Source of the DNA: Geobacteraceae bacterium GWC2_53_11
Lineage (GTDB): Bacteria; Desulfobacterota; Desulfuromonadia; Geobacterales; Pseudopelobacteraceae
DNA length: 47,158 nt
Assembly (NCBI GenBank): GCA_001802645.1
Contig: MGZJ01000076.1
Location: forward strand, 8,968 to 56,125
Reading direction: 5' to 3'
Shown here: one piece after another, positions 31,771 to 47,158 of the stretch
How the letters are laid out: each line of letters begins with the position of its first letter
How positions within the stretch are numbered: position 1 is the stretch's first letter
Program-made: the position numbers and the translations under genes
Notes under the pieces: generated by a model
Seen by the model: only the letters and a program-made list of their open reading frames with translations
What the model was told of the DNA's origin: nothing
Databases searched by the model: none

Positions 31771-31903
31771 ATCTCCCGCTATGGCGGTAAAACAATCCCC
31801 TCTCCCTGAGGGAGAGGGTTAGGGTGAGGGGGAAACAGTGGTTTGTATGGCACAGCTGCCCCCTCATCCGGCCTTCGGCCACCTTCTCCCTCAGGGAGAA
31901 GGG
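31771..31903. repeat. Intact composite REP element (two linked palindromes)
   Basis: ATCTCCCGCTATGGCGGTAA, then palindrome A (CCCTCTCCCTGAGGGAGAGGG, arms about 31798-31818) followed by TTAGGGTGAGGGGGA, a ~25-bp spacer, and palindrome B (CCGGCCTTCGGCC, then CCTTCTCCCTCAGGGAGAAGG). The same composite, in reverse orientation, occurs at 44570-45956 where it is split by an IS110 element, so this copy defines the pre-insertion sequence. Confidence 0.8.
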
Positions 31904-41181: not shown

Positions 41182-44100
41182 TCATGAACAACGGCATTCC
41201 CGCAGCAGTATCTCAATCGCTCGTAAGGGGATGTCGATTCGGTCTGGGCGATTTATCAGCTCGTTTCCGAGCTCGTGGATCGCTTTGTCAATCAGGAAAC
41301 AGCGCAGCATGATTACCAGTTCTGACCGATTTTCCGGTACCAGCGGTGAGTTTTTCATGGTGTGCAGGTATGCCTTCAGGTACGAGCCGCTGACGTAGAG
41401 ATACCATGCCTCCAGCCACTGTTCGAGTAGAGGGATGTCGTCACGATGGCCTGAACTGTGCTGAACCAGCGTAGTCATAGCCGCATAGTGAAATGAGTGG
41501 ATCATGCCGGCAACATCCCGTAGCGGGGATCGTTTCAGGCGACGCTCACTCAGTGAATGTACCGGTTCTCCTTCAAAATCAATGAAGACGAAATCCTTGC
41601 CGGTAAACAGCGCCTGACCGAGATGAAAATCTCCATGAATCCTGCACTTCATCGCCGATAATCGCCGACCGGTAATTTTCTGCAGACAGCCAATAATTTC
41701 ATTCTCAGCGGCAAGAATCTGCGTCGCTCTTTTTCGTTGTTCGTTATCAGTTAGACGCGGAAGATTGACAGCAAGTGTCTGAAAGTTTCTCCGCACAAGT
41801 CCTCGCATGGACTGGAAGAGTGAGCGCTGGTAGAGGGTGGAAAATTCTTCCATACTCCAGGAACTGTCAGTTGAGCTGGTGGCCAATGCCCGGTGCATCT
41901 CTGCAGTGCGCCTGCCGAGCAACAAAGCCATTTCCAAATGCAGGCCACGTACGAGGTTCCTGAATTGATCCGGGATGCCGCTGTCTACGACTTCCAGCAG
42001 AGTTGGAAGGGGAGTTGGAAGCTTTGGCAGATCATGTTTATGAGAGAGCAGATGCTCTACAAATTGAGTGAGACTTGTCATGGTGTTTCGCCAGGCATCT
42101 CCGTGACTGGAAATGCAGGTTTGAAGTATGCCGAGATCATAAACAGTGCCGCCGGCAGAACGGAATTGAATCCCCCCGGCATAGGCCGGCACATTATGAA
42201 ATCTTTTTTTATCGGCCAGAAATCTGAGGATTTCCGGTTCCGGATTGGTCCCTTCCTCTAACCTCCGGTACATTTTGAAGAGCAGCCGGTCACCATACAG
42301 AATGCTGGTATTATTCTGTTCAACCGTTGCAACTCTGCTGGGAAACAATTCCTGCCTGGGTGGATTGCTCTTTGTTATACCGCTGCCGCGCAAACCGACA
42401 AGGTGGGAACCGTTTGTGCCATGTGATTTTGTGCGGCTGATCATCAGCTCCAGGAGCAATTCCCGGAATTCTTCAAAGTAGATTGCATCGCACAGAACTC
42501 CCTCCACATCTCCGATCAGCAGTGTTGTTATGGTTGCCAACGGATGCCGGTCCGTAAGGGCCAGTACCTGTTCGTTTGAAAGCCAGGTCATGGGGATAAG
42601 ATAGGTCTCGGGGTCCCACTCGGTGTAAGCGACCTGAATGAAAGTCAGCAGAACCATGTGATCATCCTGCTTTAGCTGACAACTGTCGATCACGCTGATC
42701 TGGGTGATCACCCGCCCTTTACCGCAAAACCAGAAAACACGTTGTAGATAGTGGGGCATGACGATGCTGCATAAACGCTCACCAGTTTTGCCTTTCAACA
42801 CGTCCCACCAGGGATGTCCTTCCCGCAGTTTAAGTTTCTGAGCGTCCTCGTGAGGTTCGGTCTGCGCTTCTGTGCTGCGCAGCTCAAACCAGAAATAGTC
42901 GTATGGTCCCATGGTGAAGTGGTATCTGGATTCCTGAATTATGGGGAAGCGGTTGCGGCTGAAGACCTCTTCGGGGATCATGCCTGCATAACGTGAAAGA
43001 TCGACGGTAACCGTTTGAGAAAAGCGTGAAAGATTGATGACAACAAGAATCTTTTCCTCCTCAACGCTACGTGTGAAGCTCAAGACTTTCGGGTTGTCTG
43101 ACGCCAGCATTTCCAGGCTGCCGCAGCCAAACGCCTTGAAACGCTTTCGCATGGCGATAGTGCGCCGCATCCACCAGAGCAGGGACGACGGATTGCGTTC
43201 CTGGTTTTCCACGTTGATCGATTCATAGTGATATTCCGGCTCAATTATGACCGGTAGAAACAGCTTCTGCGGACTTGCCTTGGAAAATCCGGCGTTTCGG
43301 TCCGGATTCCACTGCATCGGGGTACGGACGCCGTTCCGGTCGCCCAGATAATAGTTGTCGCCCATACCGATTTCATCGCCATAGTAGATGATCGGGGTGC
43401 CCGGAAGGGAGAAGAGCAGGATATTCATCAACTCGATTTTGCGGAGATTATTCTCCATCAGGGGCGCCAGCCGACGGCGGATGCCGAGATTGATGCGCGC
43501 CCTCGGATCTGAAGCATATGCCCGGTACATGTAGTCTCGCTCCTCATCGGTCACCATCTCCAGGGTCAACTCGTCATGATTGCGCAGGAATATTGCCCAT
43601 TGGCATCCCTTGGGAATAGCAGGAGTCTGATCGAGAATGTCGACAATCGGAAAACGGTCTTCCATCTCGATTGCCATGAACATGCGCGGCATGAGCGGGA
43701 AATGAAATGCCATGTTGCTTTCATCGCCGCTGCCGAAATAAGCGGCGGCGTCTTCCGGCCACTGGTTCGCCTCCGAAAGCAGCAGACGGTTTTTAAACTT
43801 GTTATCAAGGTGGGAGCGCAGTTTTTTGAGGAACGCATGGGTTTCGGGAAGATTTTCACAATTGGTGCCTTCCCGCTCAAACAGGTAGGGAACTGCGTCG
43901 AGCCGTACCCCGTCAACGCCCATTTGCATCCAGAAGTCGATCACCTTCAGCATTTCGGCCTGTACTTTGGGATTGTCAAAATTGAGATCCGGTTGATGGG
44001 AATAGAAACGGTGCCAGTAATAAGCCTTGGCCACCGGATCCCAGGTCCAGTTGGAGGTCTCAAAATCCTGAAAAATAATGCGTGCCTCGTGGTACTTCTC

Positions 44101-44526
44101 CGGCGTGTCGCTCCAGACATAGAAATCCCTGTGAGCTGACCCGGTCTTGGCGGTGCGGGCGCGCTGGAACCATGGATGCTGATCAGAGGTGTGGTTAAGC
44201 ACCAGTTCGGTGATGACGCGGATGCCGCGCTTGTGGGCGGCATGAAGCAGCAGCTTGAATTCACGAAGGGTGCTGTAGATAGGATTGACATCATAGTAGT
44301 CAGCGATGTCATAGCCGTCGTCCCGCTGGGGAGAGGGATAGAACGGAAGCAGCCAGAGTGCCGTAACGCCAAGTTGCTGAAGGTAGTCAAGTTTGCCGAT
44401 CAAACCGAGGAAATCGCCGGTGCCGTCACTGCTGGAATCAGCAAAAGCCTTTATGTGGACTTGATAAATAATGGCATCCCGATACCAGAACGGGTTGTCC
44501 TCAAGTAGGGAATCTTCATGACGCAT
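41182..44526 (-). CDS. treS: Trehalose synthase-maltokinase fusion (TreS-Pep2 type)
   Basis: 1114-residue fusion. The N-terminal ~550 residues are a GH13 trehalose synthase (NPFWYRDAIIYQVHIKAFAD, catalytic segment GVRLDAVPYLFE, acid/base region LLSEANQWPED, FLRNHDELTLEM), interconverting maltose and trehalose. The C-terminal half, from about 560, is a maltokinase-like aminoglycoside-phosphotransferase fold with RIHGDFHLGQ and FIDFEGEP, making maltose-1-phosphate. Such fusions feed GlgE-type glucan synthesis, although no glgE is visible here. ATG at 44526 is supported by AAGGAGG 8 nt upstream. It precedes otsA; its upstream gap contains a REP element and an IS110 insertion in the opposite direction. 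Confidence 0.94.
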   Translation of the reverse strand: MRHEDSLLEDNPFWYRDAIIYQVHIKAFADSSSDGTGDFLGLIGKLDYLQQLGVTALWLLPFYPSPQRDDGYDIADYYDVNPIYSTLREFKLLLHAAHKRGIRVITELVLNHTSDQHPWFQRARTAKTGSAHRDFYVWSDTPEKYHEARIIFQDFETSNWTWDPVAKAYYWHRFYSHQPDLNFDNPKVQAEMLKVIDFWMQMGVDGVRLDAVPYLFEREGTNCENLPETHAFLKKLRSHLDNKFKNRLLLSEANQWPEDAAAYFGSGDESNMAFHFPLMPRMFMAIEMEDRFPIVDILDQTPAIPKGCQWAIFLRNHDELTLEMVTDEERDYMYRAYASDPRARINLGIRRRLAPLMENNLRKIELMNILLFSLPGTPIIYYGDEIGMGDNYYLGDRNGVRTPMQWNPDRNAGFSKASPQKLFLPVIIEPEYHYESINVENQERNPSSLLWWMRRTIAMRKRFKAFGCGSLEMLASDNPKVLSFTRSVEEEKILVVINLSRFSQTVTVDLSRYAGMIPEEVFSRNRFPIIQESRYHFTMGPYDYFWFELRSTEAQTEPHEDAQKLKLREGHPWWDVLKGKTGERLCSIVMPHYLQRVFWFCGKGRVITQISVIDSCQLKQDDHMVLLTFIQVAYTEWDPETYLIPMTWLSNEQVLALTDRHPLATITTLLIGDVEGVLCDAIYFEEFRELLLELMISRTKSHGTNGSHLVGLRGSGITKSNPPRQELFPSRVATVEQNNTSILYGDRLLFKMYRRLEEGTNPEPEILRFLADKKRFHNVPAYAGGIQFRSAGGTVYDLGILQTCISSHGDAWRNTMTSLTQFVEHLLSHKHDLPKLPTPLPTLLEVVDSGIPDQFRNLVRGLHLEMALLLGRRTAEMHRALATSSTDSSWSMEEFSTLYQRSLFQSMRGLVRRNFQTLAVNLPRLTDNEQRKRATQILAAENEIIGCLQKITGRRLSAMKCRIHGDFHLGQALFTGKDFVFIDFEGEPVHSLSERRLKRSPLRDVAGMIHSFHYAAMTTLVQHSSGHRDDIPLLEQWLEAWYLYVSGSYLKAYLHTMKNSPLVPENRSELVIMLRCFLIDKAIHELGNELINRPDRIDIPLRAIEILLRECRCS

Positions 44527-44569
44527 ATGGGTATCCTCCTTGCTGATTACTGCTGTTCTGCCGCTCTTC

Positions 44570-44674
44570 CCTTCTCCCTGAGTACCCTCTGGGGCATAAA
44601 GGAGAAGGTGGCCGAAGGCCGGGTGAGGGGGAAAGCGTGCCTGATACACCAACGTTCCCCCTCACCCTAACCCT
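44570..44674. repeat. Left part of a composite REP element split by IS110
   Basis: Palindrome B (CCTTCTCCCTGAG...GGAGAAGG, interrupted by the 18-nt insert at 44583-44600; GGCCGAAGGCC), a spacer, then the first half of palindrome A (CCCCCTCACCCTAACCCT), ending at the CT core 44673-44674. It continues at 45912. Confidence 0.75.
44583..44600. other. 18-nt insert at a REP apex (copy 2)
   Basis: TACCCTCTGGGGCATAAA, identical to 26670-26687 and again flanked by AG and GG. Without it the palindrome would read CTTCTCCCTGAGGGAGAAG, as in the intact copy near 31883-31903. Confidence 0.6.
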
Positions 44675-44720
44675 TGTATGATCCAAAAGGCGTTAGGTTC
44701 GTTTTTGTTGTATGCTCCAA
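44674..44720 (+). repeat. Direct repeat of the IS110 left end
   Basis: TTGTATGATCCAA at 44674-44686 recurs as TTGTATGCTCCAA at 44708-44720 (12 of 13). A sub-terminal copy of the end, possibly a recombinase or RNA contact. Confidence 0.5.
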
Positions 44721-44903
44721 GTACTTGCTCCGGGACGCTGGAGTAAGTAAGTCGGAAAGGTGAATCTGTTCCTAGCCCAAGGTCTTTGAACCTGTGGGAG
44801 AGATGAGATCCCTTTCTGTATGCTTTGTTCCCAAAAGTTGGACGGTATCTTAAGCCTCCTATTCAGGATGAGCTTGAATTAGCAAGGGAAGCTGGAACAA
44901 AGT
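44690..44903 (+). ncRNA. Predicted IS110 bridge RNA
   Basis: Non-coding RNA predicted to specify both target and donor DNA for the recombinase. 5' stem-loop: TACTTGCTCC (44722-44731) with GGAGTAAGTA (44740-44749). Target loop: outer stem AAAGG/CCTTT and ATCT/AGAT (44756-44767 with 44806-44815), inner hairpin AGGT/ACCT (44780-44793). The left internal strand CCTAGCCC (44771-44778) matches the left target and the right strand CCTGTGGGAGAG (44791-44802) is complementary to the right target. Donor loop: outer stem GCTTTGTTCC/GGAACAAAGT (44822-44831 with 44894-44903), ACGGTATCT (44842-44850) identical to the right end at 45905-45913, inner hairpin 44850-44877, and GCAAG (44882-44886) complementary to the left end plus core. 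The 5' end is inferred from the junction promoter. Confidence 0.8.
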
Positions 44904-44930
44904 TAACTTTAACGTATCAAGGAGCTGCCT

Positions 44931-45896
44931 GTGAAAACTGTTCTTGGAATCGACCTGGCAAAGAAAAAATTTGACGTTGCTTTGTTAAACAACGGCAAAT
45001 GCAGATCCAAGGTTTTTGAAAACAATCCAGCCGGGTTTTCTTCATTACTAACCTGGCTGGCAAAAAATGGTGTCCAAAGCGTTTATGCCTGCATGGAGGC
45101 TACCGGCAACTACGGAGAAGCGCTTGCCAAGTTTCTTCATGAAGCCGGTCATTCTGTAAGCGTAACCAATCCTGCTCGGATCAAGGCGTTCGGACAATCA
45201 GAGTTGCTGCGTACCAAGAATGACAAGGCGGATGCCAAACTGATTGCTCGTTTCTGTGAAAAAATGGAGCCGACGCTCTGGCAGCCACCGCCCGCAGAAA
45301 TTGAGTATCTGAGAGGTCTTGGTCGCCGCCGTGACGCGCTCATCAGTATGCGCACACAGGAACTCAACCGTCAGGAAACCGCTAACGAAACGGTCAATTC
45401 ATCTGTTCAGACAGTGCTTGAGTGTCTGGACAAAGAGATTGAACAGATCAGCAAACTTATCAAAGATCACATCTCCAAACACCCAGGTCTCAAGCATAAA
45501 CTGGATTTGCTCAACTCGATACCGGGTGTTGGTCCGTCAACAATCGAAGCCATTCTTTCAGAGATCAACGCTTTTGAAGGCTTCGAAACGATTGAGCAAG
45601 TTGTTGCCTACATGGGACTTTCGCCCAAAGAGCACACTTCCGGCACTTCCGTTAAAGGCAAATCCGCTATCTGCAAAATCGGCAATGCACGACTGAGAAA
45701 AGCTCTGTATATGCCTGCATTATCGGCAATTACACACAATCCAATTGTCAAAGCCCTGTACGACAGAATGAAGGCAAAATCAAAGAACGGTATGGTGATC
45801 GCCTGCGCTTGCATGAAAAAACTGGTGCATCTGATTTATGGTGTAATCAAAACAAACAAGCCATTTGACCCAGCATACACACTAAAAACAACTTGA
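44931..45896 (+). CDS. IS110-family transposase (RNA-guided DEDD recombinase)
   Basis: 321-residue recombinase. N-terminal RuvC-like DEDD domain: D8 in GIDLAKKKFDV, E in CMEATGNYGE, and D residues in RTKNDKADAKLIARFC. A coiled-coil segment lies about 155-190. The C-terminal Tnp domain (transposase_20) has the helix-hairpin-helix-like SIPGVGPSTIEAILSEI, then YMGLSPKEHTSGTSVKGKSAICKIGNARLRKALYMPALSA with the conserved Ser. GTG start with AAGGAG 6 nt upstream. The TGA stop overlaps the TTGACT hexamer of the right end. Length and motifs are complete with no frameshift. Confidence 0.95.
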   Translation: MKTVLGIDLAKKKFDVALLNNGKCRSKVFENNPAGFSSLLTWLAKNGVQSVYACMEATGNYGEALAKFLHEAGHSVSVTNPARIKAFGQSELLRTKNDKADAKLIARFCEKMEPTLWQPPPAEIEYLRGLGRRRDALISMRTQELNRQETANETVNSSVQTVLECLDKEIEQISKLIKDHISKHPGLKHKLDLLNSIPGVGPSTIEAILSEINAFEGFETIEQVVAYMGLSPKEHTSGTSVKGKSAICKIGNARLRKALYMPALSAITHNPIVKALYDRMKAKSKNGMVIACACMKKLVHLIYGVIKTNKPFDPAYTLKTT

Positions 45897-45911
45897 CTAC
45901 GATAACGGTAT
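45893..45911 (+). promoter_or_regulatory. Outward -35 element at the IS110 right end (circle-junction promoter half)
   Basis: TTGACT (45893-45898) points out of the element. When the ends are joined through CT, it lies 17 bp from TATGAT (44677-44682) at the left end, a near-consensus sigma-70 promoter that would drive the bridge RNA and transposase from the excised circle. Confidence 0.75.
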
Positions 45912-45956
45912 CTCTCCCGCAGGGAGAGGGGATTGTTTATCGCCATAGCGGGAGAT
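45912..45956. repeat. Right part of the composite REP element split by IS110
   Basis: Starts with the second CT core, then CTCCCGCAGGGAGAGGGG (rest of palindrome A), ATTGTTTATCGCCATAGCGG and GAGATT. It matches the reverse complement of 31771-31812. Confidence 0.8.
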
Positions 45957-45969
45957 TGGATCTACTCAG

Positions 45970-47158
45970 CTATCCTCCTTGCTTTGCTCTGCCGTAGCGT
46001 TCCAACTGCTTCCGCATCGACGCTGCCAGCCCCTCCGGCAGCATGTCCCAGGTAAAGCGCCACTCCCAGTTGCCGAAAGCGGTGCCGGGTATGTTCATGC
46101 GCGCCAGGCTATCCAGTTTCAGGATGTCCTGGAACGGCATGATTGCCGTATCGGCGACAGACATCAGTGCGGCTCGGATCAGGTCGCCCTCCGGGTCTTC
46201 TCCCGGTGTGCCCAGATAGGCATTCATCTCGAACCGCTCCGCCTCTGAAATGGCTGCATACCATCCTTTGGAAGTGTCGTTGTCATGGGTGCCGGTATAG
46301 ACGACACTCCGTTTGACGTGGTTATGGGGGAGGTACGGATCGGACGGGCCGGAATCAAAAGCAAACTGCAGGATCTTCATGCCGGGGAAGTTGTAGCGGT
46401 CACGCAACGCTTCGACTTCGGGGGTGATCACCCCCAGATCCTCCGCAATGATCGGCAGCGTACCCATGGCTGCCTGGACGGCATCAAACAGCCGCTCTCC
46501 CGGCCCCTTGATCCAGAGCCCGTTCTCGGCTGTCTTCTCGTGCGCCGGAATCTGCCAGGCTGCTTCGAAACCGCGGAAGTGATCGATCCGGACGATATCG
46601 AACAGCTCGAACATCGAGGCAAAACGGTCGATCCACCACACATAACCTTTCTGTGCCATGACATCCCAGTCGTAGTGCGGATTGCCCCACAGCTGGCCGG
46701 TTGTCGTGAAGTAGTCAGGCGGCACGCCCGCTACGACCGTGGGGTTTCCCCTGGAATCAAGGAGGAACAGATCGCCATGGCTCCAGACGTCGGCAGAATC
46801 ATGGGCGACAAAGATGGGAATATCTCCGATCACGGCGATGCCGCGCTGGTTGGCATAGCTGCGCAGCTCCTGCCATTGCCGGGAAAACTGCCATTGCAGA
46901 TATTTCTGAACCGTGATTTCGTGATCCAGTTCGTGCGACAGTTTAAGGCGCATCTCAGGTGTCGGATGGGATGCTTCCCGGGGCCACTGGTTCCAGCTCC
47001 TGCCGTTGTAGCGCTGCTTCAGCGCCATAAACAGGGCAAAGTCGTGCAGCCAGGGGGTGGTGGCGCAGAAATGGCCGAATTCAAACGTCCGGGGTGATTC
47101 GTCATGGGCCAGGAAGTTCGCCCCGGCCTGCTGCAGCAGCTCCATTTTGGCCGTTGCA
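45970..47158 (-). CDS. malQ: 4-alpha-glucanotransferase (amylomaltase), 5' end off the right edge
   Basis: GH77 disproportionating enzyme that transfers alpha-1,4-glucan segments. The last ~396 of the usual ~500 residues are inside the window; the frame is open to the edge. Family landmarks: GIAVIGDIPIFVAHDSADVW, AGVPPDYFTTTGQLWGNPHYDW, nucleophile region IVRIDHFRGFEAAW, acid/base region PIIAEDLGVITPEVE, YTGTHDNDTSKGW and a C-terminal NIPGTAFGNWEWRF. It is upstream of and codirectional with treS-maltokinase. Before the IS110 insertion the gap between them would have been ~200 bp, so malQ-treS-otsA-otsB was probably one operon for maltodextrin and trehalose metabolism. Confidence 0.94.
   Translation of the reverse strand, partial: ATAKMELLQQAGANFLAHDESPRTFEFGHFCATTPWLHDFALFMALKQRYNGRSWNQWPREASHPTPEMRLKLSHELDHEITVQKYLQWQFSRQWQELRSYANQRGIAVIGDIPIFVAHDSADVWSHGDLFLLDSRGNPTVVAGVPPDYFTTTGQLWGNPHYDWDVMAQKGYVWWIDRFASMFELFDIVRIDHFRGFEAAWQIPAHEKTAENGLWIKGPGERLFDAVQAAMGTLPIIAEDLGVITPEVEALRDRYNFPGMKILQFAFDSGPSDPYLPHNHVKRSVVYTGTHDNDTSKGWYAAISEAERFEMNAYLGTPGEDPEGDLIRAALMSVADTAIMPFQDILKLDSLARMNIPGTAFGNWEWRFTWDMLPEGLAASMRKQLERYGRAKQGG

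What the first reader, a model, noticed from the sequence alone, without database searches (positions are those of the whole stretch)
44675..44903. IS110 bridge RNA can be read out: guides match the actual target and donor
Seen directly: the 5' non-coding region folds into two loops. In the first, CCTAGCCC (44771-44778) equals the left target CCTAACCC with one G-T wobble, and CCTGTGGGAGAG (44791-44802) is the complement of the right target CTCTCCCGCAGG with one wobble. In the second, ACGGTATCT (44842-44850) equals the element's right end (45905-45913), and GCAAG (44882-44886) pairs with the left end across the core. Outer and inner stems frame each guide pair. This is the architecture established for IS621-type bridge RNAs, here for an element whose target is a REP palindrome.
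Basis: partly seen in the sequence, partly recalled or inferred. Interest (0 to 1): 0.9.

Follow-up and report, generated by a model that had tools for sequence, protein, structure and literature searches.

The report
IS621-like bridge RNA, REP target
A jumping gene in this bacterium carries the same kind of two-ended guide RNA that was described in 2024 for its relative IS621, with guide letters that match both the repeat it sits in and its own ends: a clear but ordinary new member of a known family.

Summary
The finding is real and is a standard IS621-type bridge RNA. The element (44675-45913, CT core, 321-aa DEDD/Ser recombinase, 43% identical to IS621) sits in one arm of a REP-like hairpin. 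Its left end folds into a 5' hairpin, a target loop and a donor loop. A covariance model built from seven relatives, without IS621, recognises the E. coli IS621 left end (41 bits, E 5e-10). The fold covaries (8 doubly changed pairs). In 19 elements the target loop fits its own left flank better than foreign flanks (0 of 20,000 permutations); the right flank fits more weakly (12 elements, 20 of 20,000; L083 fails).

Corrections: the right target guide is 7 nt (44796-44802), not 12; the extra CCTGT is inner stem plus linker and recurs in IS621 and relatives with other targets.

REP targeting is not new: IS621 does it. Transcription and activity are untested here. New member of a known kind.

The parts
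44675..45913 (+). IS110-family (IS621-type) element, 1239 bp counting one CT core; left non-coding end 44675-44930, right non-coding end 45897-45913
   Evidence: Flanks joined at the core restore a repeat unit found elsewhere in the genome; ORF; core position inferred from the IS621 rule
44666..44674 (+). left target positions 1-7 CCTAACC plus CT core (44673-44674)
44677..44682 (+). -10-like TATGAT; with the -35-like TTGACT of the right end it forms a promoter (17-nt spacer) only in the circular form
   Evidence: no + strand promoter match in the linear form 44550-46000
44725..44746 (+). 5' hairpin of the bridge RNA
44754..44817 (+). target-binding loop: outer stem 44754-44767 with 44806-44817, inner stem 44781-44783 with 44790-44792
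44771..44778 (+). left target guide CCUAGCCC, fits target positions 1-8 with one G.T pair; the next base A does not pair with core T (position 9)
44796..44802 (+). right target guide GGGAGAG, 7 of 7 with target positions 8-14 (CTCTCCC)
44803..44804 (+). target-loop handshake bases AU, fit donor positions 7 and 6 (T, A)
   Evidence: rule
44823..44902 (+). donor-binding loop: outer stem 44823-44831 with 44895-44902, inner stem 44852-44859 with 44866-44875
44842..44849 (+). left donor guide ACGGUAUC, identical to the right end 45905-45912
44878..44886 (+). right donor guide, split as in IS621: AU (44878-44879), two skipped bases, G (G.T pair), CAAG (44883-44886)
44887..44888 (+). donor-loop handshake bases GG, fit target positions 7 and 6 (C, C)
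44931..45896 (+). 321-aa IS110 recombinase; catalytic residues D8, E56, D98, D101, S237
45893..45898 (+). -35-like TTGACT overlapping the end of the ORF, half of the circle-junction promoter
45912..45918 (+). CT core and right target CTCTCCC; the arm continues into the hairpin CCCTCTCCC-GCA-GGGAGAGGG once the flanks are joined
31810..31830 (-). free (unoccupied) repeat unit with the same 14-nt target CCTAACCCTCTCCC

Best explanation
An IS110-family, IS621-type insertion sequence whose left end encodes a bridge RNA. Inferred working: the element excises as a circle; the joined ends create a sigma-70-like promoter that drives the RNA; the RNA binds the DEDD/Ser recombinase as two dimers. The target loop pairs with both strands of the repeat arm CCTAACC-CT-CTCCC (left guide with the bottom strand, right guide with the top strand), and the donor loop pairs likewise with the joined ends GGTAT-CT-TGTAT. 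Top strands are cut after the CT core, exchanged with help of the handshake bases, and the junction is resolved, so the element inserts without target duplication. Shown here: sequence fit, fold with covariation, homology of protein and RNA to IS621, guide-flank tracking across relatives, and the restored empty site. Inferred from IS621 work: transcription, binding, catalysis. Present activity is unknown.
For: Nearest solved structures IS621 and ISCro4; five catalytic residues kept; fold z -3.2 and covariation in 7 relatives; R2 finds IS621, R1 27 of 29 chosen loci; own-flank fit 0 of 20,000 permutations left, 20 of 20,000 right; shuffled left ends 0 of 3000; four of four handshake bases fit; circle promoter; empty site restored.
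Against: No RNA or recombination data. Only one copy, so its own site choice cannot be tested. Left guide does not pair with core T, unlike IS621. L083's right flank does not fit its guide (1.5 of 5). Relative L002/L063 (68% identical) has no bridge-RNA match upstream, and R1 matched only 22 of the first 46 sources, some of which lack the upstream DNA. One of five covariation measures, further pair types, lies below its shuffles (16 against 18.7). Right-flank fit is modest (8 of 12 own, 20 of 132 cross pairs at 4 or more of 5). Half of 14 circle junctions tested gave weak promoter matches of 7-8 of 12.
Confidence: 0.94

Rival explanations
1. The left end is a structured 5' untranslated region or riboregulator of the recombinase gene (compare the small RNAs reported for ISPpu9), and the fit to the flanks is a by-product of a low-complexity C-rich repeat.
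For: The left target fit alone is common in shuffled left ends (1226 of 3000). ISPpu9 small RNAs regulate its transposase (abstract start in the listing).
Against: The ordered guide set is not reached by shuffles (0 of 3000); loops follow flanks in elements with quite different targets (0 of 20,000); homology to the IS621 bridge RNA.
Confidence: 0.03
2. A bridge RNA with an unusually long, 12-nt right target guide.
For: 12 nt are complementary with one G.T pair; 6 of 3000 shuffles reach this.
Against: CCTGT stands at the same place in IS621, L003, L054 and L083 irrespective of target and overlaps the inner stem. In 13 of 13 free units with CCTARCCCTCTCCC the base opposite its U is T, not G.
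Confidence: 0.04
3. A decayed element: the RNA and ends are relics and the element no longer moves.
For: Single copy in the genome; remnants without a gene occur in relatives (L057, L060).
Against: Intact ORF with catalytic residues, intact guides, ends and circle promoter.
Confidence: 0.25

Closest known systems
IS621 bridge RNA and recombinase of E. coli (Durrant et al. 2024, PMC11208160; Hiraizumi et al. 2024, PMC11208158)
   Same: Domain make-up, catalytic residues, CT core, bridge RNA in the left end, 5' hairpin plus target and donor loops, split right donor guide, handshake bases, circle-junction promoter, insertion into a REP
   Different: 43% protein identity; other REP family; right target guide fits 7 of 7 here (4 nt in the IS621 structure); left guide does not pair with core T; about 35 nt between the predicted RNA start and the 5' hairpin, where IS621 has almost none
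ISCro4 recombinase (PDB 9t56)
   Same: Second-best match among solved structures, E 1.3e-73
   Different: Its bridge RNA and target were not examined here
IS1111/IS110 seekRNA (Siddiquee et al. 2024, PMC11187229; passages seen)
   Same: Target-complementary RNA from the non-coding region; natural reprogramming between relatives
   Different: IS1111 types carry the RNA downstream of the gene with the two target matches in reversed order
REP-specific IS such as ISPpu9, ISPpu10, ISPa11 (Tobes and Pareja 2006, PMC1525189; abstract seen)
   Same: Specific insertion into REP
   Different: Other hosts and REP families; no guide reading in the abstract

Membership tests
IS110 family, IS621-type | DEDD RuvC-like domain (PF01548) and C-terminal PF02371 domain | tested here: met
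   93 and 90 bits, over both cut-offs
IS110 family, IS621-type | Catalytic D, E, D, D and S | tested here: met
   D8, E56, D98, D101, S237 align with IS621 D11, E60, D102, D105, S241
IS110 family, IS621-type | Long non-coding left end, short right end, CT core, no target duplication | tested here: met
   256 and 17 nt; joined flanks restore a repeat unit found elsewhere
IS621-type bridge RNA | 5' hairpin, target loop and donor loop, conserved by covariation and homologous to the IS621 RNA | tested here: met
IS621-type bridge RNA | Guides complementary to own target and donor | tested here: met
   relatives, with failures told there (L083 right flank)
IS621-type bridge RNA | Left target guide also pairs with the T of the core (9 nt in IS621) | tested here: not met
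   A at that place here and in L054, G in L083; the 2024 survey speaks of eight or nine nucleotides, so I treat this as variation, not as a defining feature
IS621-type bridge RNA | Handshake bases fit the non-cognate DNA | tested here: met
   Four of four in this element; in relatives weakly informative
IS621-type bridge RNA | RNA transcribed from the circle junction and bound by the recombinase | not testable with these tools
   Only a promoter-like match across the joined ends
IS621-type bridge RNA | RNA-guided recombination | not testable with these tools
   Needs an assay
IS1111 group | Long non-coding end with the RNA downstream of the gene | tested here: not met
   Right end is 17 nt, RNA lies upstream; sub-terminal inverted repeats were not scanned for

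The most novel reading that the evidence does not exclude
REP-targeting bridge RNAs keep a built-in G.T wobble in the left target guide so that one guide serves several repeat variants: here CCUAGCCC can read both the CCTAGCCC-type units (10) and the CCTAACCC-type units (3) that carry CTCTCCC, and IS621 also has G against A of its target. Against it: in E. coli H240 all 55 free sites found are A-type and 8 of 9 IS621 copies sit in A-type sites, so there the wobble is not explained by variant coverage and might instead tune pairing strength.
Probability: 0.12. Interest if true: 0.4.

Novelty: new member of a known kind. Interest (0 to 1): 0.2.

Why it matters
It is an independent, sequence-only confirmation of the bridge-RNA rules, down to the handshake bases, in a Geobacter-like bacterium, and it adds a natural guide with a full 7-nt right target arm and relatives with naturally changed guides, useful as test cases. 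It changes no concept.

Tried and rejected
Rfam at gathering thresholds gave no match in the window. A second copy in the own genome was sought and not found; the assembly has 91 contigs, so a collapsed repeat cannot be excluded. A phylum-wide protein search gave only the own genome (1 of 395 at E 1e-85). The first RNAalifold structure put pairs inside the left donor guide; I replaced it by a hand-drawn structure modelled on IS621. A first script for the donor handshake picked wrong stretches in several rows. The second gives 17 of 19 paired at target position 7 and 8 of 19 at position 6 but mis-picks L022, L084 and L101; reading those three by eye gives 18 of 19 at position 7, L084 being the exception. 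Most elements have C at position 7 and G in the guide, so this says little; L098, with both changed, fits. The wobble-as-variant-coverage idea was tested on IS621 and not supported. A second promoter in the 5' leader was looked for by eye only.

Rows dropped: of 27 model matches 20 entered the guide table; L004, L018, L019, L065, L070, L087 and L094 were left out because I assigned no left junction. L096 was dropped as a duplicate guide, leaving 19. For the right flank, six of the 20 rows had none (L057, L021, L022, L014, L085, L086), L096 was dropped again and L088 was dropped because its right end was found only with a mismatch, leaving 12. The left guides were chosen by eye as best-fitting 9-mers; removes that bias by taking the best offset for own and foreign targets alike. 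The right guide was anchored on a following AT, so the target-loop handshake AT is not an independent result in relatives.

Full report
What is there. The window holds one IS110-family element between a left flank ...CCCTCACCCTAACC-CT and a right flank CT-CTCCCGCAGGGAGAGGGG. Counting one CT core it spans 44675-45913. The recombinase ORF is 44931-45896 (321 aa, GTG start), with both IS110 Pfam domains. Among PDB chains its best matches are IS621 (3.4e-74) and ISCro4 (1.3e-73). It is 43% identical to the IS621 protein of locus L095, and the five residues whose mutation abolished IS621 recombination (D11, E60, D102, D105, S241; section read) are present as D8, E56, D98, D101, S237.

The insertion site. 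Joining the flanks gives TTCCCCCTCACCCTAACCCTCTCCCGCAGGGAGAGGGGATTG, close to a unit found elsewhere in the genome. A search of the own genome for the 14-nt target with up to one mismatch gave 32 places, against 2 for the reversed control pattern. Thirty became loci and were read: 10 CCTAGCCCTCTCCC, 3 CCTAACCCTCTCCC, 9 CCTAACCCTCCCCC, 7 CCTAACCCCCTCCC, 1 CCCAACCCTCTCCC; the two not read are CCTAACCCTCCCCC. The first two types form a small hairpin (as CCCTCTCCC-TCA-GGGAGAGGG in most copies). In this window the unit stands beside an inverted GGCCGAAGGCC arm both at the insertion and at a free unit at 31810-31880. Calling it a REP rests on this form and dispersal. Two Y1_Tnp (PF01797) genes exist in the genome but no such unit was seen beside them with the strings I searched.

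The RNA. The left end folds as a 5' hairpin and two stem-loops, -73 kcal/mol against a mean of -59 for 200 shuffles. An alignment of seven elements (A4) with a structure drawn after IS621 gives 97.8% paired cells (37.0-55.5% when the partner is slid by 1-3 columns), 8 pairs with changes on both sides (6 of 500 shuffles as high), and a covariation score that 0 of 500 shuffles reach; the number of further pair types is lower than in the shuffles (16 against 18.7). The structure was fitted to these sequences, which favours it in the slide control. A model from four of them (R1) matched 22 of 46 sources in a first search and 27 of 29 chosen sources in a second, among them Leptolyngbya, Deinococcus, Xanthomonas and enterobacterial IS110 loci and the E. 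coli IS621 left end at 20 bits. The unmatched sources include more distant elements, sources without the upstream DNA, and L002/L063, a 68%-identical relative with 1005 bases upstream, whose left end seems replaced. The model from seven elements (R2) matched 11 of 14 sources, IS621 at 41.3 bits, E 5e-10, and in the window only this place. Where a recombinase gene was mapped, the matches lie directly before it or overlap its start. IS621 was in neither training set.

Guides here. In the numbering of Hiraizumi et al. (sections read) the left target guide CCUAGCCC fits positions 1-8 with one G.T pair and does not pair at position 9; the right target guide GGGAGAG fits 7 of 7; the left donor guide is identical to the right end; the right donor guide has the IS621 form, A-U, two skipped bases, a G.T pair and CAAG. 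The handshake bases AU and GG fit donor positions 7, 6 and target positions 7, 6, four of four.

Chance. Shuffled left ends did not reach the ordered sum of the four guides (0 of 3000) nor all three scored guides together (0 of 2000). Alone, the left target guide is not striking (1226 of 3000 with wobbles counted fully, 59 of 2000 with a wobble counted half).

Guides in relatives. Of the 27 model matches 20 were given a left junction; 7 were not and are not counted. With one duplicate removed, 19 elements score a mean of 6.61 of 7 against their own left flank and 4.88 against foreign ones (334 cross pairs); 15 of 19 own and 6 of 334 cross pairs reach 6.5; 0 of 20,000 permutations equal the true assignment, and the same holds for 15 elements after removing four with shared or near-shared targets. 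For the right flank 12 elements are usable: mean 3.88 of 5 against 3.17, 8 of 12 own and 20 of 132 cross pairs at 4 or more, 20 of 20,000 permutations as high. The clearest failure is L083, whose right flank (CCGGAAT) does not fit its guide GGGGGAG although its left guide fits positions 1-8; a later rearrangement at that end is my guess. L054, 72% identical in protein, has target AATCCCC-CT-CGATC and guides AAUCCCCC and GAUUGAG.

Expression. In 44550-46000 the + strand has no sigma-70-like match by the scan used. Joining the ends gives TTGACT-17 nt-TATGAT. Of 14 elements with both ends, this one and L054, L083, L003, L084, L098 and L101 give 9-10 of 12 matches at a 17-nt spacing; the other seven, IS621 included, give 7-8. 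A promoter made by the circle is described for IS621. The predicted start here lies about 35 nt before the 5' hairpin, a leader that IS621 hardly has; its role is unknown.

Distribution. One copy in the own genome of 91 contigs; DNA matches in 6 of 98 genomes, protein matches at E 1e-60 in 3 of 76 of the family, at E 1e-85 in 4 of 141 of the order and 1 of 395 of a phylum sample, the own genome included each time. The genus looks Geobacter-like: a genome of the same genus (G017) has a contig as long as one titled Geobacter sp. with the same kind of match; this is an inference.

What is known. That IS110 elements carry such RNAs (predicted in 85.7% of IS110 group members), that IS621 prefers a CT core and that IS110 elements insert into REP, and the circle promoter are in Durrant et al. 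2024 (sections read, passages). Siddiquee et al. 2024 report natural reprogramming (passages). REP-specific IS are listed by Tobes and Pareja 2006 (abstract). In the open-access library, Geobacter with IS110 gave 11 papers and Geobacter with repetitive extragenic palindromic gave 1, none with a title or abstract start on this element (listings only); ISfinder could not be searched. So this is a new member of a known kind, well supported and of low surprise.

The wobble. Both this guide and that of IS621 have G against A of the target. Here one guide can so read two unit types of the genome. In E. coli H240, 8 of 9 IS621 copies sit at ATCAGGCCT and 1 at ATCGGGCCT, and 55 of 55 free sites found with ATCRGGCCTACR are of the A type, so variant coverage does not explain the wobble there.

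Noticed in passing
window 44610-44628 (+) and 31862-31880 (-): A second repeat arm, GGCCGAAGGCCGG[GA]TGAGG, stands inverted beside the target unit at both places, as in composite REP pairs (BIME-like; the name is recalled).
   Followed up: partly
L086 1240-1330: Pantoea IS110 element with a tandem duplication of the first part of its left end, including the start of the target loop.
   Followed up: no
L057 1499-1609; L060 1461-1546: Bridge-RNA remnants without a recombinase gene match; in L057 the left target guide still fits the left flank at 8 of 9 positions.
   Followed up: partly
L002 1-1005: A 68%-identical relative keeps a normal right end but has no recognisable bridge RNA upstream; only the last stretch before the gene resembles the others.
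   Followed up: no
L021 and L022: Two elements of one uncultured genome have the same left flank, but L022's left guide fits it 9 of 9 while L021's has one mismatch and one wobble and equals the flank of L014, another genome.
   Followed up: no
window 44683-44724: A leader of about 35 nt between the predicted RNA start and the 5' hairpin, also in L003, L054 and L083, hardly present in IS621.
   Followed up: no
window 41182-44652 (-) and 45970-47145 (-): The long ORFs on both sides look like a trehalose synthase/maltokinase fusion and a 4-alpha-glucanotransferase (named from memory of such sequences, not searched).
   Followed up: no
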